A stretch of DNA of 64,000 bases. It comes from Lethocerus indicus (Eukaryota; Arthropoda; Insecta; Hemiptera; Belostomatidae). The notes beneath the pieces were generated by a model. That model saw only the letters and a program-made list of their open reading frames with translations, was not told where the DNA came from and did no database searches. The position numbers and the translations under genes are program-made. Position 1 is the first letter of the stretch. Each line of letters starts with the position of its first letter. Shown in pieces: positions 26,046 through 64,000 of this stretch. The stretch is from positions 18,014,442 through 18,078,441 of the forward strand of contig JACDQD010000008.1 in assembly GCA_019843655.1 (NCBI GenBank), written 5' to 3'.

Positions 26046-26084
26046 GGCGCGCAAATCGTCTCAAATTTTCTCGGGTAAAAGTTT

Positions 26085-36718: not shown

Positions 36719-36874
36719 TCAGTAGTGACTGGCGACTGTCTCCTTAACCCTAACTTCTGCCGAACGTGAGCTATATTCCACTTCATCATGAGCTCTTTCT
36801 TGAAGTTGCGCTTCAAAATATTCCAAATTTTCAAATTCCCATTCATTAAAATTGATAGACATCCCGCTGTCCAT
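36719..36874 (-). CDS. unrecognised small open frame
   Basis: A 51-codon frame starting MDSGMSINFNEWEFENLEYF, rich in Glu and aromatic residues, with a stop at 36719. Frame 1 of the same strand is also open through this stretch (36682-36891, 69 residues, basic, with KKELMMKWN and RRQSPVTTESE). I recognise neither. The low-complexity-free composition is unlike most chance frames nearby, so it could be an exon, but no clear splice sites or homologue support it. Confidence 0.15.
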   Translation of the reverse strand: MDSGMSINFNEWEFENLEYFEAQLQERAHDEVEYSSRSAEVRVKETVASHY

Positions 36875-39033: not shown

Positions 39034-39188
39034 CGGTCGACTTGGCGACTCCCAGCGGACTGAACCCAGTCTGGTGATTTGCCGTCAGTGACTTCGAACC
39101 CGTGATCAGTGTCACTAACTCCGAATCTTTGTTGCCCGTACTCTGTTGGCTTAAAAAGTGACAGCATTCCACTATGTGGAAGAACATC
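39034..39188 (-). CDS. SMG5: SMG5 exon 10, PIN domain
   Basis: Acceptor cattttttacag. Encodes LMFFHIVECCHFLSQQSTGN, then KDSELVTLITGSKSL, matching the LYKILDSCKQL and VTIITG positions of the human PIN domain. A donor GTAACT follows at 39033. If it is not used, the frame reads through for 22 more residues to a stop at 38969; that tail does not resemble SMG5, so a further exon at lower coordinates is likely. Confidence 0.85.
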
Positions 39189-42100: not shown

Positions 42101-45100
42101 CATGAATATTTGACATCGGAATATTATGAAGTTGCGCAAGGTGCTAATTTCCAGTTTGCAAAACACTCGCGGACAACCGGCGATACACCTTTTATGATAG
42201 CCCGTGGAACCCAGTTTGGGGCGAGGAATAGACGCTTCAATAATAAATACGAAGCCGGCACCTCCCTATATATTTACTCGGGTGGTCCTTCTTCGAGTCC
42301 CGGGGGAAGGCACCCGGGGGACTTTCGGCCGAGCGCTCCAATACACTACTTGAAAAGAAGTTGGTCCCTAGCTTTTTCCCTTATGTAACCTATATTGAAG
42401 TTACACCCTCCTGAGTAAACTGGAAATAGTTGACGACTGGAGAAATAAAATGGGGTTTGAAGCTCCAACACAAATTGAGACATTGATTTGTTGAAGAATA
42501 CAATTTCCGACGTACGGTCCGAGACGAAATAAATTCAAATAATGCGAAATGTGAGCACACACATACATATGTAATGTAAAACCTATTTGCAAATGCGTTC
42601 ATTCGGAGTTAAATGTAGAAAAGCGTAATGGGAGTAACATTGAAGACAAGACGCAATACAACAATAGCATGAATAATATAATAGCTTGAAATAACGCTAG
42701 TAAAATGCTTCCTTGGCCAAAGTACAGAATTACTAGACCTCATTAAGGGTTTAGAACCCAAGAACTAAGAGGAGACAGAATGTAGCACAATACGTATAAT
42801 GTAAAATATTGAAATATTTATTTATAATAACAATGCCTCCGTATTTTATCTTTAATTCTCCCAGGTTCCGCTTTCCATACAACATACAAACTTGTCATCC
42901 AGTTTACAAGACGAAACCGCAATTCGGAAGCGGAAAGGGACAATACGATTCGGGCGACGACATTTCTGGGGGGTGCTGCGTCGTTTTCCATTGTCGGAAT
43001 TCAATTTTACACCCCCTAGAGTAATAATATTAACTCAAGCGAAACGCTTCCCGCGCAGCAGGAAGGGGAGGAAACATTTTCGAGAACTACGGTCTTTTGC
43101 ATAAAACAGTGGGAGAGGACGGGAGGGAGAAGGGGGTTATTTTCTTCGCATACGTTGTACACAGCTCGCGTAATAAATATGTTATACCCGGGGGTTGAAG
43201 AGAGCGGGCACGGGGGGAGGGGGGGCAGGAGCGGAGAAGGGTTGTTATACAAGAGGCAAAACTGAAAAGGGCCCCTGACATTAAGACGGGATGTCGGCGC
43301 CCGGGAAGGAATCAACCACTGAAGAAGGGGCCCGAGTGGGGTTGGGGGGTAGTAATGGCGCCGCTCACCAACTACACAAGGGAGAGAAACGAGGAGACTG
43401 AGAGTTGGAGAAGAGACAGAGAGGGGAGATCGGTATCCAAGAAATAAGACAGAGACGGAGAGGGACCGAGAAGAGAGGGAGGAAGGAAGAGGCTTGTGGA
43501 AGGGGGCGAAAGTCGTCGAGAGACAGACGCTGGGACGGGAGGGCGGAGGCAATAAAGAGGTTGGCGCTGAGAGGCCGGGGGCTGAGAAGGGAGCGGGGGG
43601 ACGGTGACGTTTACCAGTCAGACAGCTTTCAACCGCAAACACTCATCCCACCGCCACCCCCAGTTCCAACAGCGGCGACACACTTTTACACTACACCCTC
43701 GCCTACACTCAAAAGAGGTATACTAGACAACAAATAAGTACTTGTAATGCAAAGTTATATAAACACCCCCAGCCCTCCACATACACAAAATATATAAAAA
43801 TAAATAAAATGTAATTTTGTAATCACATTTTTGAGGGGCAGTGGATAGTGGTTAAAGCCGAAAGGTTCAGACCACTGAGACCGGTAGCGGCAAGAGTTGG
43901 ATTTTGACGTGCGTCTGCGTGTTTAGCTAAGGTTAGGTTGAGCCTAAGTTTAGATCGAGCGTAATGCAGCAAGCTCTCCGTACATCGTGAAACCCCAGGG
44001 GGTGCATACCTCAATAAGACCTGACGTGAACGGCCGACACGAGTTCGACCTCGGAAGGAGGACTAACTTTTTATTCAATTACAAAATTCGAATTGACTCC
44101 CAGTGAATAATAATTATGAACGGATACAAAAGGGAAATGAATCAACAAACGAGGATAAAATCAATAGAAACACGATTTAGGTGTTATTCATTCAGTGTTT
44201 AACAGCTATTTGAGACAAGAGCAGCGATAACTCTACCCTCTGGGCCAACGTCCTACCAGTTCGCACGGCCTATGTGAACACTTGCTCAAATTGTAATCAC
44301 TCTATTTCACATTAACAATGAAACAACGAATTCTCACCTACTATTAACAAATGATAAAATATAATAACTGAACTACAATATTCAAACTATAATATACTTA
44401 TTATTATAATAAAACGTGTTTCGTGTTATAACATCGAAATAACACATGTTATTAAGTTATTTACATTTTTCTGACCGGTCGAAAGTTTAAGAAAGTTCGA
44501 AGATTGAATGTACAAGGGGGAAACAAAATTGGGAAAAGAAAAGGGGCGAAAGTTATTTGATGCGTAACGGAGAAAAAGGATAGGGAGGCGGAGGGGGCAA
44601 GATACGGAGAGGGAGGGCGGCAGAAGGTTTCCGGACGGTTTGGCCCTCACGGCATTAAGTAAGGGGTGAACATCTCCCAACACTGAGGGGGTGGGGTGGG
44701 GTGGGAGGCCGGTGATCAGCCAGCCCCGCAGCAGTTTACAAGTCCAATTACACGGGAGTCTGGAGCCAGCGCCCACCCCACCTCTAGCTCCTTGAGTAAA
44801 CTTTGACCACCCTCAAGAAAACACACCCCCGCCACCACCGCCGCCGCCGAGGCAAACAACCCCTGCAGGGATCATTAATCAACTGGCTAAGTGAAACATT
44901 AGCTCTCCTCCAATTACTTAAGCTCCGCCCCCCCCCGCTCCTCCTTCCATCCGCTCTGTATAACCTCGCCCCACAACCCCCGGCCCGCTTCCTTACTACT
45001 TGCGAACTCGACCTCCCCTAAGCTACTCCACTACTCACAGACTACACTAGTTAAACGCTACAACTCTCCCGAAACCGCCGCAACATCTCGATAGACTATA

Positions 45101-48100
45101 CAGGAGCCTGATGCACACACAACACCTACTCACGTCTAAATATCGTTAGAATGAACACAATGAAATTTGCACTGTGTACTGTCAGTTAATTTACAACTCT
45201 GAATATAAATATATACACAAAAACACACACACATAGACATATATTAATTGTTAAACAATCTCAAAATCAGAAATCTCGTATTTCGAAAGTTCTTCTTCGA
45301 AAAGCTTTGAAAATAAGTGAATCTACACATAATTTAGATCAGCCGTTAAAATTATCAAATAGCGTGAATGTATTGTATATTAAAATGTGTAATCAGTATT
45401 GATTTATTAAGTAATTAGACGAGTAATTCAGAATCGCTTTTTAATTTTGAATCGGTGTACGTAATTTAATAGAAAGAATGCCGAATTAAAATCTTTCATA
45501 TTTTATCAAATCCAGGTCTAACTCGGAGGAGAAAAGTCCTTCAATCTTCTTATCTCGTTATGTTCTCACCTACGAAGTGACGAAAGACAATGCGGGAAAA
45601 AGTGAGTAGTAAGGGAGCCGGAGTAAACTCGGTTAAAAATTCATTCGTGACTGGAGGAGGAGGAGAGAACGCAGCCGCGGGACACACGTGCGCCAACTTT
45701 CATAGCCGACCCCATTTGGGCGGAGTGGAAGGCGGCGGGGGCCCCCGACAGAATGTTTGTTTCAATTATTGGTGGCGCAAAGTGGCGGCCGCCGTTGCCA
45801 CCGCACCAACCCCGCCGTGGAAGTACTTTAATAATTTGTGAGATTAAAGTGAGAGGGTGTAGGGGGATGAAGGAGGGAGAGAGGGAGGTGGGGAGAGGAT
45901 GCTCGCAGGGAACCCACCTCCTCCAGATTAACCCCCGGTGTAAAGCCCGCGAGATATAAAGCCCACTCCGACCCCACCAAGCCCACCCACTCAACCCGCG
46001 AAGTTGAAGGACTCCGGCAAGAATGAGAGGGGGATGAAACAAATAACAAAGACCGCTTCTGGACTGTTTCGTTTTAACGCGTTAGGGGTTCCCAAAAAGA
46101 GTCGAAAGGGTTTTACGCTATTTACGCTTCCATACAGCGGGGGCATACCCGCAGTAATAAAACGTTACGACTAGCTTAAATTGGAAGATAAAACGTTCAC
46201 TCCGTAAATAAAACCTAGGAAAACATAAAGCATTAACGACGATAAAAGGATTACATTGAATATTAGCCTGAACCAGACATAACCTCAGTATCAGTGTTGA
46301 CTTTCATCATGCGCAAGTTCCTCACTGTGTAAAAACATATTTCCTATCTAACAGCTAGTAAAGATTTCAAAATAAAAATAGTTATAAATAAAATAAAAAC
46401 GAAAAATAATTTAATACGGCTCTATACAAAAGTTGTAGCGTGACAAATTTCACAGGGGCATTAGTGACAAGTAGTCACGTAAGATAAATTAATCCTGCAA
46501 CCAAGAAGGAGAGATTGCAGACAGGAAACGCTTTAATAATTCGTAAATTATTAAAGTGGGAAGGGAGAGAGTCATTTCTCCGAGGGGGAGCGTGAGTGAG
46601 CCCGTCAAGACGGGGAGAAATACACCGCCGGCACTACTTAGGGGAGGAAATAACGGTGGAACAGCGTAATAATAAAGTAGAGGAGGAGTTTCCAAACCCA
46701 CTCCTCGGTTGGGGGAGCCGGGTCGGTTTTCTATTCATAAAGGCATGATTTAGATGTTCTTGGGCGAGGGAGAGAACACGAAATATTGGCTGGCTCCTCT
46801 GTCTCGAGGAGCTCCCAGACCGGAAAATGGTTACGACCCACTGAAGAGATGAACTGAGAGGGGGAGGCGGATTCACCCCTCGAGATATTCTACCGTACAA
46901 AGACGCACACGCACATACACACGCATACGCACAAACGCGCGTGCACCAACGCCCAAACAAAATCAATGACGCGTCATAAAGTAAAACCCGTTTCCGCTGA
47001 ATGAAGTCGGAACATGTAACGTGTGGCGCTCGCAACCGTCAATGATCCGTGGAAACTAACGACCGAAAACAAAATACAGAACTCCGTAAAATGAAAACAT
47101 ATAACCTGCCATGATTTCAAAACGTAACAGTTTCGTGCATATAATTTCTCTGGTTTGGTCACACAGAAAATATGGTATTTTGATTTTGATATCTGTATAC
47201 TATGTATATAGTAAATTGAAATCACTCCATTACGTTCAAACGCGCAATAAATCAATTGCGTGTGTGTTTTGTACTCCCTCTCAATTAAAGGACTAACCAA
47301 GGCACGACATACTAAGAAATGAGTCAATATGATATATAGTGGGCTAGCAGTGGTAATCTACCGCATGTTGAGATAACAAGCATATTAGTGACAGGTTACT
47401 CGGTGAATTATAGTGCCGGCATGTATGGGTTCATCTGGGTTTCCACTGACACCCTCTATTGAGTCAGTTCACCTTTCTATACGATAGTGCATATCTTTGG
47501 AATGATAGTGTACACAGTACAGACCGTCTGTCATACAATCTGTGCCGTGAGTACGCAACACGTGTTAATATCGCATTATATTACTAATCTAAAGCTACTA
47601 ACGGCAGCGAGCATAAAAGAAGAAATCACAGGAGCAACGTAATTCCGAACCATCTCAGATATACCATACATCGTAACCATCCCCCCATAAATATCATGGA
47701 ATGAATGGAATAATAATTAACAGGAATCCTGTATTCTATACGTCATAATTCATCTTATAATAAAAGAATATTATCGATATAAATTCAAAAAGGTTTATAA
47801 TCAATTTTGCAGGAAGAGACTCATTCCGTCAATACACAAATTCAGACCGAGTGGAATTCGAACAAAGAAAAAGACCGATGGAGAGTGTTGAAGAACTGGA
47901 GAGGATAGGGGATTTAATAAGCGGCACATATTGGGGAGGCTAGGCGGGAAAAAGAGGGTGTTATTTAGAGAAAAGTGAGGGGCGAGGGCTAAATGGAAAA
48001 GTAAGAAATAAAAGCGTGCGACGGGCAAATTAACCGTGTCGAGGGGTCGGCGGCGGGAGGCGGAAAACACCCTTTATAAATCAGTCATAACTCTCGTGAA

Positions 48101-51100
48101 AAGAGAAGCAGGCGGAGAGTAGGGAAGGAGCGGAGGGAGAAAACATTTAGAGGGTGAGGGTTACCCCAATCTACATAATAGGAGAGGACGGCGTGCGTGC
48201 TCCGCACAGATTACCATAAAGCCGTCCCCAACCCCACGACGTTTCAAGTCGGCAGCCGAGGAAGGGGGGGGGGAATTCAAATGAATTGCACATTGTGAGA
48301 GCGAGGGAGAAGGAGAATAGGGTCGGGGGGAGAGAGAGAGAGTGAGAGAGAAGGAGAATAGGGTAGGGAGAGAGAAAGAGAGAGAAGGGGAGGGTTGAGG
48401 CGGAGCTCCGAGTTTAGCATTCAAAACAAGTCCGAGCCCCACCCCAGGCCTCGGATGGAGGGATGATTTGATGTGTTTAGACATTAGGGGGGCGGGTAGG
48501 GGGCTCCGCAAGCCAAGGTGCTTCGAATACAAATGCGGTCCCCGCCGCCCACTTGCCTCCTAGCTTTGCTTAGTTTGCACCCTTGTTCCGACCAAGCTAC
48601 GAAACAATCGGGGCGGATCCCGCCCACGCCCCTCCGCCTACCGCTAAGCCTCAGATTTATTTAAGATACGTCTGGGAAAATCGAACCGACACGAATACCG
48701 ACTCTTTTCGTATTCCGTTCGGGGTCTTCCGTATTACCACTCTTCTATATTAAACAGTAAGATGTGACTACCTTACATATAAGCTCACGCTTTATGTATT
48801 ATTGACTTAACACTAGTTTAAAAACGATCAGGGTAATTTTAGAGTAGATAAAATTATTAAAGAATTCCGTCGAACTACTGGATTATTAATACAAAAAATA
48901 GATACTGAAATCTTCATTAACAGTAATTCTGTTTGGATAAGGAAGTAAGAAGGTAATGAGAACTATAATTCTTAAATTACCACGTAACGTTACGTAACCA
49001 TCCGATCAGCAAAGCAGCTACCTACTTATACGCGACAACATATTCCTCATCAAAGCACGGCCTTTGTCTCCCTTATGAGAAGTAAACATGTCTATACAGT
49101 ATATAAATAAGAACGACGACATTTCGAACAATTACCAGCCTGATATTACCAACACTTGGAATATATACCAAATTGTGGCCAATTATACATTCAACGAATG
49201 GATTTCGTGATAAATGTAAGTTCGTGATAATGAATAATAATGAAATGGCAATTCTACTCTTTCCTATTTCTACTCTTTAATTAATTCAGTGGATAACGTT
49301 TCCCAATATATAATTAGTTAATTTAAAAATTTTATTTTCAATAAATAAATATACGCAATTATGCATTAATTTAAAAAAAATTCAAAAATTAGAGTTACAT
49401 GTGTAACTGTTTTATTCGAAGTAATTAAAAAATGTACCGCATAATAGAATTCGAGTTGGAAATATAATAATAACGTAAGTGAAGGAATATAGGGCGGAGA
49501 AGGGAAGAGATACCAAGGAGGTGTCTGTCTCATAGCGTGTGGATGTGTTGAGTGGGCGAGGGCGTGTGGGCGTGAGGGCTGAGGAGTGAGAGCGTGTGCG
49601 TGTTAATACTGGAGTAGTTGGGTGTGAGGGATCATTAAACAGGACTTAGGGTTGGTTTGATTAAACAGGAGCAGGGGACACCACACCACCACCACCACCA
49701 CCACCGCCGCCGCCGCCGCCGCCACTGCCGCCCCTTGCTTGCTTGGCTTATTGATTCACCCCTCGCACACGCTCACACGTACACTCGCACACACGCACAG
49801 TGAGTGAGAGGGAGGGAGACAGGGAGGGAGAGAGGGAGGGAGGTAGAGAGAGGGAGGGAGGGAGGGAGGGAGGTAGAGAGAGAGAGAGAGTCAGCGAGGC
49901 AGAGAGGGAGGGAGACGGAGGAGGGAGGGAGCGCCAGGCAGACACCCTAATCTCTTACTCGGCACACAACCCCTATCTACGAGCCTGTCTCACTCCCTCT
50001 CTCTTTCCCTCTCCCTCTATCTCTCCCTCTCTCTCAAGTCCCCTCCTCCGCCCACGGCTGTTCCGCCAACGCCATCTTCCCCTCACCAACACCGCCCACC
50101 AACATCCCCCTTTTTCTTCCATTAAAACTTCACACCGAGCTCGCACGCCATAGATTAAAACTTAAGACACTCGCTCACGTATATAACGAACAAATGATAC
50201 AGGGGCTAATGTCACCCTCCCCACGCCCCCCTCCAACATCCTATTAAAATCATGAATCCCTCGTCCGTCATATCACTGTATCTGCATTCCGAGACCCTGT
50301 CACAGACGCAGTGAAACGGCTATATTACGCAAGTCTACACGAAAGTGACATTAAAATACAGATTATTAACGACCGCATAAATACACACACCGGAGATGTT
50401 ACTGGAATTAGTTTTAACGTTAATATCTAACGTATCAAAACTATTTATTTAAAAAATTATAAATAACACTTTTTTAATTCATCATCTGATACTAATTATT
50501 TAATACTAACATCATTCCCCAGTTTGAATTAAAAATCATTTCTTTATTCGACTTATGTTATTAAATAATATTTATAGCGCTCCGTCTACTATTCATCTCT
50601 AACCTCACGCAGTTCTACACGTAGACGGCAGAAGACTGGATATCACGAGATGCCCACGATCGGGGGCTAACTTAAAAGTCGGAACACGCCCGTAATGGTC
50701 ATAAATATGTAACGTGCGGTTCCACCAGCGGTCGGTGTGAACGTCTCGTTCCCGGGTGGTAATGTGGGCCGAAGAGAAAGAGAACGGAGAAGGGGGAGAT
50801 AAATAGAGGGAGAAAGATAATGGAAGAAAGAGAGAGAGAGAGAGGGAAGAGAATGAGAAGGAGGGGGAGGAGCTAGCTTCCCAACCCCCCACGGCGGTAC
50901 ATACGTATATAACGGAGGGAGGGTTGGGAAGCTAGAATTTCCACGTCACCTCCTCTCTACAAGCCCTGGAGGCTGCCTATCCGCTTTATGTCACGACATA
51001 ACTTTATACCCGCAGCCACTCGGCTATTGAATTAATTCCGGTTTCCCCTCGCTTCAGACCCAAACACATAGACACAGAGCACCGACTACATACGTAAGGC

Positions 51101-54100
51101 CTTTATTAGAACCAACGAACCGCTCAACCCCTTCTCAATTTGCCTTAGCGTTTCGTTGTCACTCCAGTGCTCTCTCGCGTGAATTTCTTAATCGGAAGGG
51201 ATGCAATTTTATAGCATTATACGTCTTATTAGTGCCTAAGAGCGAGTTTCGACCCTGGAGAGATCGTTTCCAAGTGTATCAGATTTTCTATAAAACAATT
51301 TATGACTATAAAACGTTGCCGGGAAAATCATCGAAAAAACAATATAAATGACACACAATCGGTATCGAATGTTTCATTTCCCCACCTCTTCAGTTTTGGA
51401 GCAATAAACGATAGACTCACTCGATTTACCGGTTCATTTGAAATACGTCTGTACTTCCCGCGCGGTCAATTCACTGTTCGATTCAGTTAACTTGTTTGAA
51501 AACTCGCTGTAATATACGGGAATAAAAAATCGACCTCTCGTTTGCTGCCCCGCTCCCTCGGTGAAATTAAATAATAAATCCAATCGGCACCCTCGCCCCC
51601 GTTCCACCCCTTTTTTATTGGCCCGAGGGCAGTTGGACGGTATCGAAATTCAGAGTGAACGAGGACAGGGGCGGCCCGAGGAAAGTGCGCTAGTTTATGG
51701 CGGTTTGTGGACGGGAAACATCCTACTCGGAGTGGCTGAAAATCACTACCCACACCCTCCCCTACTACCCATCCCCTGTAACTGTACGTGTTTACGCCCT
51801 CCCGGAGACGATGTGTTTATTAAACCCGGAAACCACCCCCCGGGTATAAAACTTTGTGAAATATAAAAGGCCTTCCGGGGGTTGTCACCATCCGACCACC
51901 GTGTTGCTGCTCAGTAATTGGATGTCGCAAACCCTTCGCTCCCGACCCACTTGGAGATGATGATTTACTAATCTATTTATCTAAACTTAACACACTATTC
52001 CGTTAATTCCCACTCAGATTTATTGCAATATTCCTTTCTACATCAATTAGAAAACAGGTATAAAATAAAATGTAATAATGTGTGCTCTTTATGAAGGCCA
52101 ATATGAACAAAACTATACTGACTACTCCAATAACAAATTAAAAGATAGAGGCGGCACTATTTGTTGCTTGAATTAACCTCAATTTTATCACAAAATAATA
52201 ATTCTTTATTTGGTATAACCCCCGATAAGTGTTTATAGGATTAATTTATAAACTGTATCAATACGAGAAATGGATTTCTGCAACCAGAAATAAGAACCAA
52301 ACTATTAATATTGAAAGACAAACCCGTTCCGTAATACAAAACTGTGTAATATTTAATTAAATTCAAAGGCAATGCAAATTTTAATCATAAATACTACATA
52401 TCATCGAGTACAATTTATAAGTAGACGCCAACATATTTTTTTCCAACATAAAATATATATTCCACCTACATTTACAGCCGGCTAGTCAGGGCCAAAAGGC
52501 AGAATTGTTTGTTCGTGTCATTATCATCAATCTCGACAAGAACAAGTCCAAGCGTAATCTTCAACAAAAAAGCTAACAGTCATATTTACAAATTACTGTT
52601 TTCGTGTTGTCCCACTACACAGGTTCAAAATGCAATTAACTTTGGGTAAATACTGTCGCCGACGAACAAGCATTATCCGACCGAATCTTAAACGGCGCTT
52701 TGTGTAGGCAATCACGCAACGCTGGCAAGCCTTGAGGGCTCGACATTCTAACCCCGTTTCAATTATACTACTAGCGAATACATGCTGGTGCATTTAACCT
52801 GTTCTCGACGCCATTTCAATTCATCAAAAACCTCTACTAAACAGAAAGTTATAAAAGTAATTAAGTGAGGCACAAATATTAATAATATCGTGTCTGTACG
52901 AACTATAATGTCATCCACAAAAACACAAACTTTAATTATTCATACGTCATGGGTGAAGAAATGAATGATGGAGAAAACCTGTTGTAAATCCTGTACTACC
53001 AGAAATTATATGACAACATTATTAAAAGTCAAACTACGACTGATTGTTATGTTACGGAACATCGGCTCACCACTAAACGGACACAAAATATAGGTTTTCA
53101 ATACATCCCTATGCCATCTACTACGTTGGAATTATTGGAAATGTCCGCGGGGTGACTGGGTCCCACCGCCACCCTCAGGGATGAAGGGTTGCACGGGTCA
53201 AGGGTGAGGGTAAGTGATTAGCTTTTGATTGGATTTTCGCTCCGCCAGATAAATTCATTTCGGCACCCTCCCCGGTCGCCCACTATTACTAAGCCCCTCG
53301 TAAACCGTCTCAGTCGAATTTTGAATATCATTACGACCAGGAAATAGGTGTCGTTCTGTCTGATATTGAAAAAGCACTCCATTAGCTGCCACTAACGGAA
53401 TTTACAAAACAGGTTAACGCGCCTCATTCTAGTTTAAATGGTCTACTGATTACATTGTATATAGTGGTAAGAAAACGACGAAATACATTCAGTAAAATAA
53501 AGTCGGTCCGGTCATGTTTGTGTTTGTAAATGGGAAGAAAATAGAACGACAAATATAGAATTGTTCCCTTTGAAATTTAGTCACAATTCAAAATTAAATT
53601 CATACAGTTTACCAACCGAGTATGCCAAAAACAGCTACGTTTCAGTTAGACCGGAACATATTTAGGTGTCATGATACAAATTCTATAGGACAAGAATCAA
53701 AAAAAGAAGACATCTCGCACTATGATACAAACCATTAAAATTAAATTAACTACTCTTCAACTGTAAAAGTAAGGGCAATATACGATAGTTAATGCCTTTG
53801 GCCCCGAATTTGAAACCTGATCTCTATGTGTACGTAAATATCCACCCGCCGTCAATAGAAGCACTAATAAAATTATCGGATGATTGAAATTTGACAAACA
53901 ATAAATCAGGTATTCATGAATAAAAAACTCACGTCATGAATATATTCGTAAGCGAATATTCTGAGAGGGCTACTGGGCAAATTCCTCGTGAACACCTAAT
54001 TCCAACACTTTAAAACGATTTAAGGAAATCATATCTATCGGGATAAGAAGAGAAAAAATAAAAGAGAATGACAAGTCAGATATCGTCAACCTCTGCCCCA

Positions 54101-57100
54101 CCTCCGCTGTGTCTAATAAGCGACATCAGAAGAGGGAATCGGTAGAGGGAGGACCGTGCATGTGATTGCCAATCAGGAAATCAATTTCCTCCAGTCCCGG
54201 ACCAGGAAGGAGAGCGGGAGTAGGAGGAGGTCGGAGGTGGAGGCCGGGGAGATAGGAAGGAAACGGATAAGGGAGGGAGTAGGGATGAGGGAGATGAGCC
54301 CGGGAGCCGAAAGAAACAGATGGTGTCGCTTTACTAACCCTCCTCTACCCACCCCTCTTCACCAACCCCACGCTGCCTCAACCAATACAATCCACTTACC
54401 CTATCTCTTTTCCTCCTTGCTTCTCTCGCTCTTCCTCTTCCCTCTCACTCTTTCTCCTACCTCGGCCTCGCCACCCACCGGGATAAATCAATACCCCACC
54501 TACTTATCTACCTCTCTACCCTCCCCTACCTTCTTCACTCGCCCACCGGGCCCCTATCTCATTTACTCCCTTCGAAAAGACTCCATTAAGATGAGCAGTC
54601 CGAAACCCCCCCCCCGGCCCTCACACTTCCACCTCACCGCCCCAACCCCCTTGCCTGCCACTTCTTCACCCTACTTAAGAGGGTGGGAATAAGAGTATTG
54701 TAAAGGCCCCGTCCTTGAGTAAAGAGAAACGGGAGAGAGGGAGGGAGGAAAGGCAGAGAACTCTTTATTTTGGTTTAATACTAAATTGAAATCTATTTAT
54801 CTTTAACACCAAGCATCTATCTCTCAACCGAATAATACGGATAAGTTTTAGTTAGGCGAATAACGGGACGAGAGGTATTTTTGATTTTAACTTCGACCAA
54901 CTAAAATGTCCAATATGAAAACGGCAACAAAATAGATTAAAAATTTGCCGATTTAATGAGCTGTATGAAAAATCCTCGATTCATATTATCAAATTATATT
55001 GCAATTCCTTCGTTATAAATTTAAATTAAAAGAAACATATGTGAAATGTTTAATACAGATTCAAATAATAAAAATAAAACGTTAAATTAACATTGCGCGT
55101 GTTTTTAAATTTGAATATGAATTCTTTCTTGAAAGTTGAATTGTAAAGAGCACAGTATGGATCGTCATTTAACGACACCGGAAAATGTTGACCAGACATA
55201 ATTCACGTTTAAAAAACTGGAACCCACCTAAATGTTTCATTGGAGTTTTAATCGCAGGAGAAAGACTACTCCCCAACAAAAAGTGCAGGGGTGACAATGC
55301 AACGGGCAATAAATTAAAAACAATGGGGGACCTCCACAAATTCGGTGTGGGGAAAAAGAGCGGGGTCGACGGAAGTGGGGAGGGAGTGAGAGGGGCGGAT
55401 AGAGTGAGACCTGGCGAGAGAGGGAGAGAGAAAACATTACAAGCGACACGAGTGGGATAGGAAGGGGACCGAGGGGTTAATAAAACGGTCATATTTCAGC
55501 GGGGCCAGTGGGCGGTCGGCAGGGGGGTCGGGTTGTGATTTTCACAGGGGGTGCGGTGAAGGGGAGGGGTGACACGCGGACATATTGTGTCATTTGAGGG
55601 GGAGAGAGTGAGACAGGGAGGGATAAAATAAAGAGTGCGAGCGAGAGGGAGAGAGTGTTGAGGAGGGGGGGACAGATAATTGAAAACAAACAAAAAGCCG
55701 CGCGCCATATAGAGGGATGGGGTGTGTGTGGGGGTGCTCTCTAATTAATTGATGATAACCGATGCGAATTGGTAGCCCCGGCCCCGAGTAGCCGCGACAA
55801 AAGCAAGAGGAAAAACAATAATTACGAGCCACCCGGCCCCACCACCGCCACCGCCACCGCCACCCATTCCCACTCTAAAGCGGGTTGGGTAATTGAGTTA
55901 TGCCCGGGTGACCCTCCCCGCTGACTCATTAGAGTCCTGTGTGTTTCGCCCGGTTAACACACTGCGACACCACCGCCCTTACCCCCCTCCCCCAACGGCT
56001 AATGAGATTTTTTCCGGACCCCGCACCGCATTCCCATGTCGGGGCGGGGGTAAAAAACAACGGTAAATCTGACCCAATTAAAACGGCAAAAGGGGTAGCG
56101 CGGGGTGGGGGGAGCCCAACAGAGTACGGCGGTTTGAACGTTAAAACGGGCGAAAATAAATAATTTAAAACAAGCGGCGAGAGGGTTTTTGGTTAAAGTC
56201 GTGTTTGTTCGGCGCCGCACACTATTATAGTAGAACCGAGATCAAATGTATTCTCTTATTGTGCCGTCGCTACGGCAATAAAAATGTAGCACGACCAGTA
56301 CAAAAAGACTAATTCAATTCGCAATTAATTGTCGAGTTTAATTCCAATGTCGCCCTAATCACTCTTCTTTAATTAGAAACAGATATAATGGTTTAAAAAT
56401 AACATCACCATCCAAAAAAATCGTATGAGCGTTGATAGTCCAAACCTTCGCGGCCAAAGACCATTTTAGTATTAATTTCTAAAATAAATTATAACATACA
56501 ATTACTGTTACGAAAAGAAACAGATGAGTGATCGAAACGAAATATGCGATGCTAAATTTGCCAGACCGACAGGGGGTGACTTGTGAACGGAATAAAAAAA
56601 ATAGGGTAATATACGATGAGGATAGAAAATGTAGACACGAAGAGAAAGAGAAGAGTAGGGGGAATAGGAGACAAAGAGGGAAAGAGAGCGGTGCTCGGTC
56701 GCTGAGTGTACAGCAGTAACCTGTGTAATAAATATTCATGGGGGCTTCCCCCGTCCCGACGCCACATCCCACCAGTTCAAACAGCGGAGAGTCAACACGG
56801 GGATGGTCGGAAGGGAGGGGAGGCTCATATTTTATACTCATTAGTTTCTCAAAGCCATCTGCAAACTCTGCACCCCGCAACCCCCACCACCACCACCACC
56901 ACCACCGTCACGAAACACCACACAAACCCCTGTTCCGCCACCTACTTTTATGAGGTGTGCAGCAACGAGAGAGAGACAGAGCGAGAGATAGGACGGAAAG
57001 AGAACGGGCGGTGGCGTAAAGGGAGCTAGTAACAGAACAATAGAGATTTTCTTTTTGGATTTACACACTGAAATTTATAACCAAATGAAACAAATTGTTG

Positions 57101-60100
57101 ATAGATTTTTAACCAACTATAACAAATTATTTACAATCAACGGAAAATGTAAATTTTAAACGTTCGTCCTTATTTCGAGAAGTGATACATGAAAGGAAAA
57201 ACTATTCTTTCAGAAAAAACAAAATATCGAAATAAAAAATAAAATAGGAGCCAATTGTAATGTATCAGAGAAAGTGGGATTATTAACATCTCAAATCGTT
57301 TTAAAATACATCTAAGCAAATTAGATTAATTTTTAAAATTTTGTTTAAAGGTAGCATGATAACTCCTGTTATAAATTCCTTCCCATCGACGTCTTTAATA
57401 CACGATTTTTTAATTCAAAATTATATTTACTTTTTAAAGTCTTGGACAGCATTCGTAACTACCACCGAAACCACTAAAGCCACTCGTATATCAGAAAGAC
57501 AGACCACTTTGTTTAAAAAACAAACTCTATTATACGGCGAAATTATTTTCATAAAGTGCGCCAGGCCGCTAGTAAATAGGACAGGATTGAGCCCCGATAT
57601 CACTTATACGGAAGCCCCAAGGGAGGGAAAGGGATACCTCGATCAAACACTTTCTAATCAATTTAGTTTGAGGGAGTAGAATGTTGTCTGGGCATAGGGC
57701 GGAGAGGGGGAAGAGGGAATTGCAAGGGACGTGATTCCCCTCAGGGTGTGATTCGGCGCTCCCTAATCCCCCTCACAGCCCCCGCCTCCATTTCAGCCCT
57801 ATCTCTCCTACCCTAGTTCCCTCTCCGCCACCGCAGCAACCCTTGTTCCAATGCATTATTAAAGTCCCCCGTCCCCCGCGACTCCCCGTAACTACTGCTC
57901 CTCTTTTTCCTCCTCGCCGCTTATTTCTTTCCCTCGGCCTCTATTTCGTTTCGGATCCTTCTCCGGTGGCAATATCCTACCTCCTCCACATCCTTGGGGC
58001 CGGTCCTATCTCTCTCTCTCTCTCTCTCTCGCTCTGGCAATCAACTAATGGCGGCAACGCCGCCGACGTCCCGCTGCTCCTTTACATATGTATGAACCGG
58101 ATCTCTCATTCGGACAACCGACGCCACTCGACCCACGCAACGGTTTCCCCTCCTCAATCGATAGACCCGAATTTTCGAATAACGAAACGCGCACACATCT
58201 GGCCGAGGTAAAAAAATCTGATCGACTGGGAATCGAACCAACGAACACCTTTTCTACGAAAGTAGGTTTTACTGTCTGTAGTACGTTGCTTACGCTTTCT
58301 ATAAAATCGAAATTCTATCTCGTTCTCTCGCTTGTTCTGTTATACTAATCATATTATTATCAGGAATGGTCCAACGAGAGCCCATGTGTACGCTACGCTC
58401 ACGAGGTAAGCAAGACTTCCCGATGTTACTAATGCACTTTTACTGGCGATATCATTTAGCCCACGACCATACGATAGCAATAATATATGCAGTAACAGTT
58501 CGGAGATATTTTTAAATAGGCCTCTTCGCATTAGTTAATTTGCTAAATTTACCCGGCCGTTCGTTCATTTATTTACCAACAGATATTAAATACAGAACAG
58601 AAATTATTAATTTAAAATTTTTTAACAAATGCGGTTATAGCAATAATGTTCTCTTTAACCTCACTCCAAAACTCAAGAAATAACAATTTTTAGTTGGAAC
58701 AAACAAGTCTCATGTTTGGATTGCCACGGCACAATCCCAATATTTTGTCGGAGTATATCAGTGCCGCCGGCAGCCAATATTTACCGGTGGGCGGGGCGTG
58801 TGAGAGAGAGGACGAGGAAGAGAGGTGTGTGCGTGTGTGTGTGTAAAGGAAGGGCAACAGAGGTTCAGTTGATTTGGGACGGTAGGGGGGAACACGTCGT
58901 GTGTGTAGGTGTATGTTGTGCGCGCGTGTGAGCTACGTGCCAGTGGAAAGAGAAACAGAAAGGGAGTACGGGAGAGACATATGAGGGGGTGTGTTTGATA
59001 AGGGCTAACGTTGGGGTGGAGGGCTGTTTATCTGGGCCACAGTTCTCACCCACCGCCCCCAACCCTTACTCCTCTTTCCGCTCTTTTCTGTTTGCTTTGT
59101 TTCACCCCTCCGCCTAAGGACTACTGCCCTCTCGGCAATGCACTCCCTCTCCTCTTGCCCTTCCCATCGTTTTCCTCGCCCACTTCACCTCCCCGCGCCC
59201 ACACACCAAAAAATGAAACGTGCATGAAAACCTGTTTTACTAAATCAATATTTGGCGAACGATATTGGATATGGCGGGGCGGGTCGGGAAAGATGACCGT
59301 GCAGGCAATGGTAGTTCGGGTTCATCCCCATACCGCCACGTGTTCATTGTAATATTGTAAATATTCCGCGGCGGGTCGAATAACCAATCCCTCATATTGT
59401 GTTTGTCTCTTGTTTTCTCTGTACCACCAGATTTCTTCTTCCTCCCCCCCCCCGTAATATTCCTCCCCACCACCTTAAACAATACTTGAAATCAAGTTGC
59501 TTTGTGGACCCGGTTTTCTTTTTACTGGAAATTAACTTCTACTAGAGCTCATTCTATGGATATTCATGATACATGGCCAACATAGCCCCCTTCAAAACTG
59601 GTATCACTGAAGTGCACAATTTCCACAAATTCAAAACATTTTTTCAATAGAAAATTTACCTATTTCAATCCTAAGTGATAGCACAAAATGCTCAACCACA
59701 CGAAAGACAAAATCCATAACAGGTAAATTCACAGGAAAGTATTTTAGAATATGCTATTCCTTGATTTATATAATCAGTGTCTCCTTTTCAAAAATATCTA
59801 AAAAAAAGTGGGTCTTGCAGCACTAATAATAAACACAATATACAAAATAACTAGTTCTCTTTTGTTCAATTTGAAAACTCTGCTCATAAAGTTATCCATA
59901 AGAGAAATAAGAGAATAGTTATAAGAGAAGTTATAAGAGAATCAGACAATACAAAAAATATTTTTGTCAAACAAAATGTTTGTATATGGAACAATTTAGT
60001 CATATCCTACAGGTACCAAATAAAAATATAAATATGCATATTTCTTACTCATTTAATTAAATTATTATGATTTTCTCTTCACACTAGATTCCCTTTAATA

Positions 60101-63100
60101 TTTTATTATTTTCAAAAATTATTGAAACTAGAATTAATGTAATTGGTTATTTTAAGTTTTCAATATGTTATATTAAACTTAATAATGTGCAAGGTTTTAA
60201 TTAAAATCAGGGTAATTAATATATCATCATTATTTTGGAAATGTAATATAATATGCTACATATGGTTCTATGCCAACCATTCAAATGTAAAATATTCCTT
60301 AAATGAAACACTGTCATTATAAATAAAGTAGTAACTAAGGATAAAAGTATTTCATCCATCCATCATGAAGTCTCCACTTAATGTTATTAACAGAGGAGTA
60401 AATAATAGTTGTTACATATATTAACAAAATATTAATTACTAAAATTTTCTATTTTTCAAATATTATGATTTTGGACTAATAAAAATGAATATGATATTTA
60501 TATAGAAAAGATGATGACAACATTCATGATAGTGGAATCATATTAGGTAAGAAATTTCCCTTCCTTCATAAATTCAACCCTATGTATGATGTATAAATAC
60601 TCTCTGTACTTATTAAATTAAATTTTTTCTTTAAATAGACATATTATATCACCAAAAACCCATCAATAAATAACATGCATTATATTGTATGTCCATGGAC
60701 AATAGTCCATGTCTGGGACAAAAAAAAAGATTAATGGAAATAAACACTTTTGTTATGAAATGTAACCAAAGTCAGTCCAGGTTATATGGTAAATTAAACT
60801 TACTTGTGGTTTGATTCCATTCTTTTCCAGTAATTCTGTGTTAAACCACTGCTTTGGTTCATTGTAATTCAGCCCAACTTCGCCAGATTGAGCAAGTGTT
60901 ATACCAAACTTAACAAGTTTGCAGGTGCGAGCATAAGTCTAAAAACAAATTATAAATAACATTTGTAATATTCAACTGTAACAGAAAAACAAACTTGGAC
61001 AATGATGTAATTTAATACATTATACAATCACTAGACTTTTTCAAATCTCTAAAGTGATATTAAAAATGTTTAATTGGATGTTTTCAAACCTACTTCTTGC
61101 TTAGCCTCCAGAACTCTTGTTTTAAGAAAATTCCAGTTAAGTTTAGTATGTGATGTTTGCAAACCAATCAAACCTCTGACATTGACATCTTCAGGAAGTG
61201 CAATGCTACATAAAAGCTCTTCTGTCATAATACCTTAAAAATAAATAATTAAGAAAATCAATAATCAAAACTTGTAAACCACAAAATTTGCATAATTTGG
61301 AAAAGAAGATGGTTTGAATATAAAATAATATTAAGAAAACATATTTATTAGAAAAATGTATTGCTATTAAACAGGATTTTTCTTCAACAGATTAAAGAGC
61401 ACTTATATGGTTGCAGCCCCTGCAACCCCTTGCAGACTGCTCAAGCATGCAGAATACCCAACATATTATAAACATAAAAAATACACGATTTATTTCTCTT
61501 CTATCAGTTTGTCCAATATTAAAACATATATTACTACATACACACATATATTATTAATATTGCCTTTATAGATTACCTTCTTCAAAATTATCCTTTATAT
61601 TCTTCAGATTTGGTACAGCTGATATGTGATTCAAGAGGGCAACTAAACGAGAAATAAGAAGTCCACAGCTAGGACCACAAGATTTTACTAAAGCAATATT
61701 ATCTGATAGCCAATCACAACAAACCTGCAAAATAAATCAGTGAATATTAAAACAGATTGTAGTTTAATCAAAATCTAATAAAATGTATGTAATAGTATGT
61801 AACAATGAATTAATTTATTTTATATACTATATTGTTATATATAGTATATACAATTAATATGCAATTTTTTGCATATCAATTTTTATTAACTAAAAATAGA
61901 CAATGACAAACTAGAAAAACTGTAAATTGTGAAAATTTACCTTAATGCTTTGCATGATATAACCATTTCGACAAACTCTATGAATGTGTTGAAAAGCTTT
62001 ATTTTCTGTAAGGATTGGGTGGTGCCAGGGTTGAATTATTCCATTGTGTTCTGAACTTAACTTTGACTTTTCTTCTTCACTAGAATATGAAAGCCCATTT
62101 ACCTTGTTTTTCTCTAATCCATTCCCTGAAAAAGTATTAAATGAATTGATAAATATTCTATATTAATTATCAATACATACTATCTCCTTTACATTTATAC
62201 ATTATTAATATAATTTCATACCATTGGGAAGAAATTCGTCATCAGAATCATTGCAATGATCAAAGATTAAACCTTCTTCACTTATATTAGAGTCCAAACT
62301 GCATATGGATTCGGTGTCATCTGAAAAAATACAAATTTAAATGGTATTAATTTGTTAACTTTTCCCTCAATTGCAGGAAATCTTTTTTAAATGAGACATT
62401 AAAATATTTCTACAGGAGCCATAACAGATGCCCTTTAGTTAAAAATAAGTTTAAAAAGTTTAATTATGAACTGAAAATAAAATTAAACAAATTTATAAAT
62501 TCATTTAACTGCAAAAGGCAATTATTATATCATTATCTTTCTATTTTATTTACTTGCTTCACATTATTGTGAAACATTTACAAGCTATCTCAAAATTATT
62601 TATCACCATTCCTAAGATAACAGATAAAAATTCAGCAATTAGATAAGCAGAAATAATAAGACAACCTAAGCATTTCTAATTAGTGTTAACAGAAAGCACT
62701 ACGCTCAGTTCTTAGTCATTTTTATGAAATACCAATATCAGTTCACAGATATTTAATTAAATAAAATGAAAAATCTGTCAGTCTGATTATTATTTCGTGT
62801 TCAGAATATGTGAATTTATCAACAAAAATACAATAACAGACACAATATCAGAATAATGAGTGATGTATCCCATTAAATCTTTCAATTTCCAATATGAATA
62901 ATTGCTGGCTCTTTAAAACTATTTCAGTACTTCCTTCATATGAAAAAGAATTCTAAATGGATTTTCATTTATTCCTGAACATCTAATCTCTAGTATTAAA
63001 TATTATTAAACAGCTGTAACTGATTTATCAAACCGGTCATAAACCAATACAAAAGTAACCAGGAGAGTTATGTAGATTAATTCAAATGACCAATGCTAAG

Positions 63101-63969
63101 ATAAAACCCTTGAACTGATATTCTATAAATAATACAATAAACATTTAAAAAATTATGAAATATAATTGCGAATGCAGACTGCAGTGAAATTAATTTATCA
63201 ATTCTTATTAATATTAATATATTCTCTAATGTTAAATTGCATATCTATTAAATAAGCACCATAAAATTATAAATATTGAAGAACACACATTTTTGGAACA
63301 GACCTTCACTCATGTCAGATGATGCGTGTGAAATACTCCTCCTACGTCTTCTACGTCTTCTCTGCTTAAAACCATTTTTCAGTAGAGGAGCTGACCTCGG
63401 AGGAAGCACAAGTTCAAGCCTTGTCACAGCACACTGAATAACTTGAGATATCAGAGAAAGGCTTAATGCCACTCCACCCATTGTATGAGGTGAACCTACA
63501 ATTAAAAAATAGTATATAATTAAATTAGAGAGGACACACTAAATCTGAAATCTCAATGCACAGACGAATATACCTTGATAATGTTTTTTTCTCTTGATAT
63601 TTAATTAGGATACATAATTCAAATAAAATTGAGATAAATTCTATATATCATATGTAAACAAATATTAACAATATAATGAATAATTTTCTGCCTCTTAGAA
63701 TTATGCTGTTATTATTTATTATCATATTCTACAAGAGAATATAAACTGATCAAAATAATTGGTATTGAAATTGATGTTTTAAAAAATTAAGACATTTACC
63801 TCTTACCTTTTGATTTCAGACGTTCAACACACATAATTGAAATTACAACCATCTTGAACAATATGTCATCGTTGAGCTTTTGGGACTCTCCTTCAGATTT
63901 GCCATTAACAGGACTAGGTTCCATTTCAGTCAGACAAATATTTAAGGCAGTCATTGCTTCATTGCATAA
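39034..63969 (-). CDS. SMG5: SMG5, nonsense-mediated mRNA decay factor (3' part of the gene, ten exons)
   Basis: SMG5 works with SMG7 in decay of transcripts bound by phosphorylated UPF1; it has an N-terminal 14-3-3-like/EST1 region and a C-terminal PIN fold. Ten exons are resolved: 63807-63969, 63304-63495, 62222-62320, 61941-62125, 61577-61724, 61094-61233, 60804-60938, 39535-39832, 39274-39445, 39034-39188. All nine introns have GT/AG ends and phases match at every junction. Recognised segments: VVISIMCVERLKSK, an eight-Arg run before SISHASSDMSEDDTES, VCCDWLSDN, LPEDVNVRGL, EMGQLWLKAEVSELE, PYLVLDAEAF, VRDTIRWLESQLKQGNRFLRAQ-type PIN motifs. The N-terminal exons lie beyond 64 kb. The last few dozen residues are not placed. 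Known SMG5 PIN domains lack most catalytic acids; here the Asp of LVLDAE is kept. One intron is about 21 kb, the others under 1 kb. Confidence 0.95.
39274..39445 (-). CDS. SMG5: SMG5 exon 9, PIN domain
   Basis: Acceptor attctctgtctcag, donor GTAAGT. Encodes VVSALDEQKRSSGRVRDTIR, then WLESQLKQGNRFLRAQ, aligning to the human PIN segment with VIDGLD, ARDGIRYLE and KKGNRYIRCQ. It ends two bases into a codon completed by exon 10. Confidence 0.93.
39535..39832 (-). CDS. SMG5: SMG5 exon 8, start of PIN domain
   Basis: Begins TCT GTA ATA (SVIARYLSQ) in phase 0 after the acceptor ending tcattgag, chosen because it matches the phase of exon 7 and has a pyrimidine tract. Encodes EKLMQEMGQLWLKAEVSELE, the conserved coiled region, then SLPPYLVLDAEAFIYHPSLV and KKFILVIPTV at the start of the PIN fold. 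Donor GTGAGC. About 20 CpG in 298 bp, in sharp contrast to exons 1-7. Confidence 0.93.
49686..49735. repeat. (CCA)n(CCG)n trinucleotide repeat
   Basis: CCA units pass directly into CCG/CGC units within the large SMG5 intron, followed by a few imperfect units. Confidence 0.9.
49799..49945. repeat. (GGGA)/(GA) purine repeat
   Basis: About 145 bp of nearly pure purine with GGGA and GAGA units on the plus strand; mirror-symmetric stretches could form triplex DNA. GAGA motifs are also binding sites for GAGA factor in insects, which is inference here. Confidence 0.85.
55841..55866. repeat. CCACCG repeat
   Basis: Short run of alternating CCA and CCG trinucleotides in the SMG5 intron. Confidence 0.8.
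56884..56908. repeat. (CCA)n microsatellite
   Basis: Eight CCA-type units in the SMG5 intron. Confidence 0.85.
58009..58030. repeat. (TC)n microsatellite
   Basis: Eleven TC units in a pyrimidine-rich stretch of the SMG5 intron. Confidence 0.85.
58215..58300 (-). repeat. tRNA-like or SINE-like fragment
   Basis: The minus strand has a perfect B-box GGTTCGATTCC (58239-58229), with a small hairpin CTAC-TTTC-GTAG upstream (58265-58254). No full cloverleaf could be drawn and the A-box is weak. May be a tRNA-derived SINE remnant inside the SMG5 intron. Confidence 0.3.
58825..58844. repeat. (TG)n microsatellite
   Basis: Mostly TG units with one GC interruption, followed by further TG-rich sequence to about 58930. 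Confidence 0.75.
60804..60938 (-). CDS. SMG5: SMG5 exon 7
   Basis: Exactly 45 codons in phase 0 at both ends. Acceptor tgtttttag, donor GTAAGT. Encodes TYARTCKLVKFGITLAQSGE and then GLNYNEPKQWF. It corresponds to the human RICCIRSFGHFIA-type segment. The next exon lies about 21 kb away. Confidence 0.93.
61094..61233 (-). CDS. SMG5: SMG5 exon 6, LPED motif
   Basis: Acceptor attttta-ag, donor GTAGGT. Encodes GIMTEELLCSIALPEDVNVR, then GLIGLQTSHTKLNWNF. The LPED followed by an RGL-like segment is a conserved SMG5 signature. No CpG occurs in the 140 bp. Confidence 0.93.
61577..61724 (-). CDS. SMG5: SMG5 exon 5
   Basis: Acceptor tattttgcag, donor GTAATC. Encodes VCCDWLSDNIALVKSCGPSC, then LISRLVALLNHISAVPNL, a helical segment aligning to the human region with a DWL start and an SRLSVLLN-like helix. 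Confidence 0.93.
61941..62125 (-). CDS. SMG5: SMG5 exon 4
   Basis: Acceptor cttttttcag-type, donor GTAAAT. Encodes GNGLEKNKVNGLSYSSEEEK and then PWHHPILTENKAF, HIHRVCRNGYIMQSIK, ending in phase 0 and leading into VCCDWL of the next exon. Confidence 0.9.
62222..62320 (-). CDS. SMG5: SMG5 exon 3, acidic linker
   Basis: Acceptor attttttcag, donor GTATGA. Encodes DDTESICSLDSNISEEGL and DHCNDSDDEFLPN, an acidic and serine-rich linker. Completes the split Asp codon from the previous exon. This linker is short compared with the vertebrate protein. Confidence 0.88.
63304..63495 (-). CDS. SMG5: SMG5 exon 2, with Arg-rich patch
   Basis: Starts after acceptor attgtag and ends GAAG before GTCTGT. Encodes GSPHTMGGVALSLSLISQ, the ELVLPPRSAP segment and KQ followed by eight consecutive Arg, then SISHASSDMSE. 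The basic patch before a serine/acidic stretch is also found in other SMG5 proteins and could act as a nuclear localisation signal. Confidence 0.92.
63807..63969 (-). CDS. SMG5: SMG5 exon 1 of those in the window
   Basis: Begins in phase 0 after acceptor ttttttactag and ends with one base of a split Gly codon before donor GTAAGA. Encodes LCNEAMTALNICLTEM and then DILFKMVVISIMCVERLKSK, matching the conserved helix of the SMG5 EST1 region. It is preceded at the window edge by intron only, so earlier exons are outside. Confidence 0.9.
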
Positions 63970-64000
63970 CTAGTAAAAAAATTATAAAAATAATATTTCT

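What the first reader, a model, noticed from the sequence alone, without database searches (positions are those of the whole stretch)
59450..59720. Abrupt CpG and base-composition boundary inside the SMG5 gene
Left of about 59.5 kb CpG is frequent; right of it CpG nearly vanishes and AT content jumps. The same change is seen in coding sequence: about 20 CpG in 298 bp (39535-39832) versus about 12 in 1,062 bp of the seven exons at 60.8-63.97 kb. In many insects germline methylation is confined to the 5' part of housekeeping gene bodies and erodes CpG there, so this may be a fossil methylation boundary positioned in an intron. Its sharpness, and its coincidence with the only giant intron, is unusual.
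Basis: partly seen in the sequence, partly recalled or inferred. Interest (0 to 1): 0.75.

Follow-up and report, generated by a model that had tools for sequence, protein, structure and literature searches.

The report
Fossil methylation edge inside SMG5 gene
In a true-bug genome the front part of the SMG5 gene has lost almost all its CpG sites while the back part kept them, most likely because only the front part was methylated in the germline; the edge lies just past an exon where several other insects' SMG5 proteins stop short.

Summary
The boundary is real. SMG5 lies on the minus strand. CpG density drops at 59,377 (95% CI 59,377-59,526) and GC at 59,617. Exons 3-13, on the right, carry 18 CpG in 1,680 bp; the last four exons, past a 21-kb intron, carry 43 in 693 bp. 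CpG loss persists at matched GC and comes with TpG/CpA excess. The genome encodes DNMT1, DNMT3 and DNMT2. Such deserts occur in 4 of 15 fixed-position 10-kb samples. A fossil germline gene-body-methylation edge is well supported, though no methylation was measured.

Not supported: that the edge is unusually sharp (8 of 18 other edges are as tight), or that depletion is a 5' phenomenon here: two neighbouring genes stay depleted deep into their bodies, and published aphid and termite methylomes lean 3'.

Unexplained: simulated CpG decay accounts for about 5 of the 16 points of GC step.

New lead: 21 of 25 PIN-less SMG5 homologues end near the counterpart of this intron's donor; 11 show what donor read-through would encode. 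An early transcript end in intron 13 could limit both transcript and methylated domain. Untested in this species.

The parts
59377..59638 (.). Boundary zone: CpG step (CI 59,377-59,526) and GC step (CI 59,513-59,638)
   Evidence: changepoint fits; step versus ramp
59514..64000 (.). CpG-depleted domain (whole domain GC 0.27, CpG o/e 0.25, TpG/CpA 1.22); continues outside the window to 68,194 in window numbering (L001:4194)
   Evidence: three-state segmentation
63807..63969 (-). SMG5 exon 7 (exons 1-6 lie outside the window, in L001)
   Evidence: Pfam EST1_DNA_bind weak, E=0.041
63304..63495 (-). SMG5 exon 8
62222..62320 (-). SMG5 exon 9 (found late; absent from the model)
   Evidence: adding it and 12 nt of exon 12 raises the alignment score to Panstrongylus SMG5 from 2446 to 2601
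61941..62125 (-). SMG5 exon 10
61577..61724 (-). SMG5 exon 11
61094..61233 (-). SMG5 exon 12
60804..60938 (-). SMG5 exon 13, last exon in the depleted domain; donor GTAAGT begins at 60,803
60753..60803 (-). Read-through of the exon-13 donor: 16 codons (VSLIYHITWTDFGYIS) and a stop; the possible end of a PIN-less SMG5
   Evidence: analogous tails in homologues
60102..60107 (-). AATAAA hexamer downstream of that stop; not more than chance (1 observed, 2.3 expected)
39833..60803 (-). SMG5 intron 13, 20,971 bp; only its first ~1.3 kb (60,803 to ~59,514) is CpG-depleted
39535..39832 (-). SMG5 exon 14, first exon of the PIN part, CpG-normal (20 CpG)
   Evidence: PDB 2hwy 'Protein SMG5' matches residues 670-828 of the earlier 834-aa model, E=3e-20
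39274..39445 (-). SMG5 exon 15, CpG-normal (11 CpG)
39034..39188 (-). SMG5 exon 16, CpG-normal (9 CpG)
38883..38950 (-). SMG5 exon 17 with stop codon (3 CpG)
   Evidence: joined CDS 2,616 nt, one stop, at the end
1..59376 (.). CpG-normal domain (segment from 30 kb left of the window to 59,513: GC 0.43, CpG o/e 1.06)

Best explanation
The boundary is the downstream edge of a fossil germline gene-body-methylation domain on SMG5. Methylated CpGs decayed to TpG/CpA from the first intron on, through exons 3-13, to about 1.3 kb into the 21-kb intron 13. The rest of that intron and exons 14-17 were not methylated. The most likely reason for the position is that the co-transcriptional marking ends there, and I favour early transcript ending in intron 13 (an intronic poly(A) site giving SMG5 without its PIN domain) as the cause. 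Shown: the CpG and TpG/CpA pattern, gene structure, DNMT exons, recurrence. Inferred: methylation itself, its germline origin, and the link to transcript ending. I give about 0.85 to the methylation-edge part alone.
For: CpG o/e falls from 1.00 to 0.25 while TpG/CpA rises from 0.86 to 1.22, and the CpG difference holds in every GC bin. Third positions agree: NCG:NCA codons are 5:46 in exons 1-13 and 17:5 in exons 14-17. DNMT1 (PDB DNMT1 entries, E=6e-37), DNMT3 (DNMT3A, 3e-21) and DNMT2 (1e-31) exons are in the genome. Deserts are present in 4 of 15 fixed-position 10-kb samples. Proteasome pieces have median CpG o/e 0.49 (n=10) and homeobox pieces 0.89 (n=10), p=0.011. CpG-normal blocks sit between the head-to-head gene starts and at a neighbouring gene's first exon. 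For transcript ending: of 148 SMG5 homologues 25 lack a PIN domain; 21 of those 25 end within 25 residues of the counterpart of the exon-13/14 junction. 11 of the 21 have V-S or V-R within 15 residues after the aligned end, as a translated GTAAG donor would give (read by eye), against 8 of 122 full-length homologues in the 15 residues after the junction. Cimex SMG5 'isoform X1' is one of the 11.
Against: No methylation or RNA data for this species. The neighbouring gene's ~9-kb intron also has a CpG-normal core, with depletion resuming after it, so a long intron alone may suffice. Poly(A) hexamers in 59,514-60,752 are no more frequent than chance. The GC step is too large for CpG decay alone: simulated decay to o/e 0.2-0.3 lowers GC from 0.43 to about 0.38, observed 0.27; third positions that cannot make CpG still differ, 0.37 versus 0.71. 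The proteasome/homeobox contrast is confounded by GC (0.33 versus 0.50). 18 of the 25 PIN-less homologues come from an unnamed source whose RNA origin I infer, and whether those species have an exon junction there is not known.
Confidence: 0.5

Rival explanations
1. Same fossil methylation domain, but its edge is set by intron length: methylation follows exons and their flanks and fades inside any long intron, without early transcript ending.
For: In the neighbouring + strand gene the desert ends 1,152 bp after a donor at 71,324 and resumes at 80,160, a few hundred bp before the next exon as judged by eye; in SMG5 it ends 1,277-1,426 bp after the donor. In Nasonia, intron methylation is seen around exon-intron junctions (PMC3794928, passages).
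Against: It does not explain why depletion fails to resume at exons 14-17, whereas it resumes in the neighbour. Only two long introns were examined.
Confidence: 0.33
2. An intronic promoter or nested gene in the CpG-normal part of intron 13 keeps that stretch unmethylated.
For: 58,001-59,000 has CpG o/e 1.25, like the 1.1-kb block between the head-to-head genes (1.27). The neighbour's CpG-normal intron core starts with a 312-codon open frame.
Against: That frame has no Pfam hit. I did not scan intron 13 against protein families; its open frames were only looked at by eye, and none was recognised as a gene. 20 kb is long for a promoter shadow.
Confidence: 0.12
3. The right side is an AT-rich isochore and CpG loss is only a consequence of base composition.
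For: GC changes within about 100-240 bp of the CpG step, and CpG decay does not account for all of it.
Against: AT-rich 200-bp windows (GC 0.15-0.30) left of the boundary have CpG o/e 1.25-1.80; right of it 0.17-0.24.
Confidence: 0.03
4. A mobile element or inserted block begins at the boundary.
For: Base-sharp junctions would look like this; a step fits as well as a ramp.
Against: 58,600-60,100, 55,500-59,400 and 41,000-47,000 match only themselves and an identical assembly copy, apart from eight fragments of at most 73 bases (very common words are skipped by that search). 47,000-55,500 was not searched.
Confidence: 0.04
5. Assembly misjoin.
For: Abrupt composition change inside one intron.
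Against: The second copy on C99 is identical, so it is not independent support.
Confidence: 0.02

Closest known systems
Insect germline gene-body methylation and its CpG-depletion fossil (bimodal CpG o/e of genes; PMC8821070, passages)
   Same: CpG loss with TpG/CpA gain, lower CpG in a housekeeping family than in a developmental one, CpG-normal gene starts and first exons, DNMT1 and DNMT3 present
   Different: The domain covers introns as fully as exons and stops in mid-gene, leaving the last four exons unaffected
Hymenopteran 5'-biased methylation (Nasonia, PMC3794928, passages)
   Same: The 5' part of SMG5 is depleted and the 3' part is not; in Nasonia, intron methylation lies near junctions
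   Different: Here depletion runs through exons 3-13 and 8.7 kb including introns, and the two neighbouring genes show no 5' limit
Hemimetabolous methylation: aphid Myzus (PMC6857007), termite Zootermopsis (PMC5111047), passages
   Same: Termite methylation covers introns and exons; the nearest named relatives of this SMG5 are Heteroptera
   Different: Those methylomes are biased to the 3' end; here the 3' exons are the unaffected part
SMG5 PIN domain, needed for NMD (PMC12923823, passages)
   Same: The exons beyond the boundary encode the PIN domain; a PIN-deleted human SMG5 failed to restore NMD in that paper
   Different: The passages concern an engineered deletion in human cells, not a natural isoform

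Membership tests
Fossil of germline gene-body methylation | CpG depletion beyond what base composition predicts | tested here: met
   GC-matched bins
Fossil of germline gene-body methylation | Excess of TpG and CpA | tested here: met
   0.86 to 1.22; NCG:NCA codons 5:46 versus 17:5
Fossil of germline gene-body methylation | DNMT1 and DNMT3 encoded in the genome | tested here: met
   (single exons; whole genes not assembled)
Fossil of germline gene-body methylation | Domain coincides with gene bodies and spares promoters | tested here: met
   for SMG5 and two neighbours; promoters inferred from gene starts, not mapped
Fossil of germline gene-body methylation | Enriched in housekeeping over developmental genes | tested here: met
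   10 proteasome versus 10 homeobox pieces, p=0.011; 2 of 10 proteasome pieces (o/e 0.93, 1.32) are not depleted; GC-confounded
Fossil of germline gene-body methylation | 5-methylcytosine present in germline across the domain | not testable with these tools
   no methylation data
5'-restricted (hymenopteran-type) methylation | Depletion limited to the 5' part of methylated genes in general | tested here: not met
   VWA8-like gene lies in desert at its VWA-motif exons near 85.7-86.6 kb, and UBE2Q-like gene at its UBC-motif exon near 94.77 kb with desert to 103.2 kb; (SMG5 itself would pass; three genes only)
Intronic polyadenylation giving PIN-less SMG5 | In-frame stop after the donor | tested here: met
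   by itself expected by chance
Intronic polyadenylation giving PIN-less SMG5 | Poly(A) signal enriched downstream of that stop | tested here: not met
   1 AATAAA seen, 2.3 expected; 3 ATTAAA seen, 2.8 expected
Intronic polyadenylation giving PIN-less SMG5 | Transcripts ending there in this species | not testable with these tools
   no RNA data for this species

The most novel reading that the evidence does not exclude
Insects share an intronic 3' end at this point of SMG5 that yields a PIN-less protein unable to complete the NMD endonuclease. In this bug it is the main germline form, and the CpG fossil records that transcript's end. Genomic CpG edges could then be read as maps of ancestral germline transcript ends.
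Probability: 0.33. Interest if true: 0.78.

Novelty: new member of a known kind. Interest (0 to 1): 0.5.

Why it matters
One gene carries both states, so it is its own control: two mutational regimes in one gene, with one edge mapped to about 150 bp. If the edge marks a germline transcript end, CpG landscapes could reveal germline isoforms in insect genomes without RNA data, and would point to natural regulation of NMD through PIN-less SMG5. The unexplained part of the GC step also says that some process besides CpG deamination respects the same edge.

Tried and rejected
Isochore-only explanation: rejected by GC-matched bins. A first segmentation that let GC content drive the states called many short AT-rich patches deserts although their CpG o/e was often near or above 1; I replaced it with a three-state model. 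Mobile-element edge: no dispersed copies of the three stretches searched. Misjoin: see rivals. The second copy on C99 mirrors C8 with a constant coordinate sum over about 216 kb and is identical over the 4,501 bases compared, so I do not count it as independent. Pfam on 59 frames right of SMG5 gave, at E<=0.01, AAA_5 (3 members) and one weak hit, so 'VWA8-like', 'UBE2Q-like' and 'TOP3A-like' are names from recall and motifs seen by eye. Literature searches on SMG5 with intronic polyadenylation, isoform and PIN domain (33 papers, 20 listed) and on gene-body methylation with alternative polyadenylation in insects (2 papers), seen as listings, showed no title or abstract on this; they do not prove absence. 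Searches were seen as listings apart from the papers cited.

Mended while checking: my first SMG5 model had 16 exons and 834 aa; it lacked exon 9 (99 bp) and 12 nt of exon 12. One search gives 17 exons and 871 aa.

Dropped or limited: of 107 homeobox and 32 proteasome matches I fetched 10 places each. Three 10-kb pieces (L026-L028) were fetched because neighbouring pieces showed deserts, so I quote 4 of 15 from the fixed-position pieces only. The homologue searches list the best 120 of 235 and of 215. Proteins outside 0.55-1.75 of the query length could not appear, so early truncations are invisible. One homologue (P0075) has an intermediate PIN match and is in neither the 122 full nor the 25 short group. 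The V-S/V-R count for short proteins starts at the aligned end, that for full ones at the mapped junction.

Full report
What the window is. The window is G000:C8:18014442-18078441 of an unnamed 427-Mb genome of 209 contigs. The joined SMG5 protein (earlier 834-aa model) matches Panstrongylus megistus best (56% identity, 99% coverage), then unnamed sequences and other bugs such as Lygus and Cimex; Panstrongylus is Heteroptera, Reduviidae. I infer a heteropteran bug. Coordinates above 64,000 continue the window numbering into L001-L005.

The observation. CpG counts per kb are 26-72 in the first 59 kilobases and 2-9 in the four from 60,001. The CpG changepoint is 59,377 (95% CI 59,377-59,526), the GC changepoint 59,617 (59,513-59,638), and GC without CpG changes at 59,626. 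CpG o/e falls from 1.00 to 0.25; TpG/CpA o/e rises from 0.86 to 1.22. A step and a ramp of 10-90% width up to about 440 bp are both compatible. In 200-bp windows binned by GC, the left side has o/e 1.80, 1.25, 1.29, 1.22 and 1.05, the right side 0.17, 0.24, 0.20, 0.16 and 0.40 (its last two bins hold one window each).

The gene. SMG5 is on the minus strand. I chained 17 exons by splice sites: exons 1-6 from 68,309 down to 64,822 in L001, exons 7-13 from 63,969 to 60,804, then a 20,971-bp intron, then exons 14-17 from 39,832 to 38,883. The joined CDS is 2,616 nt with a single terminal stop. The start codon is not settled: Panstrongylus aligns only from its residue 23. One exon passes the Pfam EST1 cut-off (E=8e-7) and another touches it (0.026). 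The boundary lies 1,277-1,426 bp downstream of the exon-13 donor.

Composition inside the gene. Exons 1 and 2 are not depleted (CpG o/e 1.25 and 1.72); exons 3-13 hold 18 CpG in 1,680 bp; exons 14-17 hold 43 in 693 bp; introns 1-12 are depleted too (o/e 0.19). GC3 is 0.30 versus 0.72, and at third positions that cannot form CpG still 0.37 versus 0.71 (p=3e-11).

How common it is. In 324 kb segmented, 20% is desert, but that set includes the focal region and three pieces chosen because they extend deserts; among 15 fixed-position 10-kb pieces, 4 contain a desert (L011, L014, L020, L031). Of 19 desert edges profiled, 8 of the 18 others have a 95% upper width no larger than the focal one. The focal edge is ordinary in sharpness. 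The deserts of that call all have GC 0.25-0.32.

The neighbours. Right of SMG5 a CpG-normal block (68,195-69,316) separates it from a head-to-head + strand gene with AAA_5 exons (Pfam E=6e-13, 7e-14, 5e-4); motifs by eye suggest VWA8. Its desert spans 69,317-72,476 and 80,160-87,914, with a CpG-normal core inside an intron from 71,324 to about 80.4 kb. Depletion includes the VWA-motif exons at about 85.7-86.6 kb. A third gene, UBE2Q-like by motifs, starts in a CpG-normal block at 87,915-88,509 and is followed by desert to 103,191; where that gene ends I did not map. Depletion in this genome is thus not limited to 5' parts.

Methylation machinery. Six-frame search with PF00145 found four exons. 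One matches DNMT1 entries of the PDB (E=6e-37); a second, 6.5 kb away, passes the Pfam cut-off and is called DNMT1 by place and recall; one matches DNMT3A (3e-21) and one DNMT2 (1e-31).

Housekeeping contrast. Ten 600-bp proteasome pieces have median CpG o/e 0.49 and ten homeobox pieces 0.89 (p=0.011); TpG/CpA 1.26 versus 0.95 (p=0.0008); GC 0.33 versus 0.50 (p=0.0002). Two proteasome pieces, at 0.93 and 1.32, are not depleted, and two more are intermediate (0.63, 0.69).

What does not fit. A neutral simulation with hypermutable CpG, giving o/e 0.2-0.3, lowers GC from 0.43 to about 0.38, not to 0.27. Something besides CpG deamination shares the edge. I leave this unexplained.

Why the edge is there. 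In Nasonia methylation is 5'-biased and intronic methylation sits near junctions (PMC3794928, passages). In the aphid Myzus and the termite Zootermopsis it leans to the 3' end (PMC6857007, passages; PMC5111047, passages). Across arthropods the within-gene pattern varies without clear phylogenetic trend, and in the mealybug Planococcus citri it is largely in the first three exons (PMC7343188, passages; that this species is a mealybug is recalled), so hemipterans are not uniform. An unaffected 3' end is not what the aphid and the termite predict. Two searches with the SMG5 protein gave 148 homologues; 122 have a full PIN, 25 lack it, 1 is intermediate. By the coordinates, 21 of the 25 end within 25 residues of the counterpart of the exon 13/14 junction (numbered 12/13 there); the exceptions are P0097, P0133, P0135 and P0136. 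By eye, 11 of the 21 have V-S or V-R within 15 residues after the aligned end, the translation of GTAAGN; the control is 8 of 122 full-length homologues in the 15 residues after the junction. The 11 include Cimex 'isoform X1' and Zootermopsis 'isoform X2'; others lie nearest to beetle or unnamed full-length sequences. One of the 21 (P0140, Plakobranchus) is labelled partial. The junction in distant homologues is placed by alignment through a weakly conserved linker. Here read-through gives VSLIYHITWTDFGYIS and a stop at 60,753. An early transcript end in intron 13 would put the methylated domain's edge about where it is. Against it, poly(A) hexamers are at chance level, nascent RNA from a long intron could mimic such transcripts, and the neighbour's intron shows that long introns may lose depletion anyway.

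Why it could matter. A PIN-deleted human SMG5 failed to restore NMD in SMG7-knockout, SMG5-depleted cells (PMC12923823, passages). A natural PIN-less form would be a candidate NMD regulator. Searches (listings) showed no report of it.

Verdict. A real and probably methylation-made edge, ordinary in sharpness, in an unexpected place within the gene, with a testable lead on why.

Noticed in passing
window 26083-28278: Tandem array of a 104-bp unit, about 21 copies, 84% matches, beside further repeats of 20-104 bp at 25.6-29.4 kb.
   Followed up: no
window 34831-35161: Tandem array of a 70-bp unit, 4.7 copies, 91% matches.
   Followed up: no
G000:C8:18055441-18271806 and C99:913082-1129447: C99 mirrors C8 with a constant coordinate sum over about 216 kb and is identical over the 4,501 bases compared; other pairs of places (with C123, C100, C133, C144) suggest that parts of the assembly are held twice.
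   Followed up: partly
L001:8596-9534 (+), 72,596-73,534 in window numbering: Open frame of 312 codons in a GC-0.60 stretch in the intron of the VWA8-like gene, at the start of its CpG-normal core; no Pfam hit.
   Followed up: partly
L024 (G000:C5:32648568-32651744): CpG o/e 2.2-2.4 in the first 1.5 kb of AT-rich DNA (GC 0.27-0.37) next to a DNMT1 exon: CpG excess, the opposite of the desert state.
   Followed up: no
window 59377-59638: GC, not only CpG, changes at the edge; CpG decay accounts for about a third of the step.
   Followed up: partly
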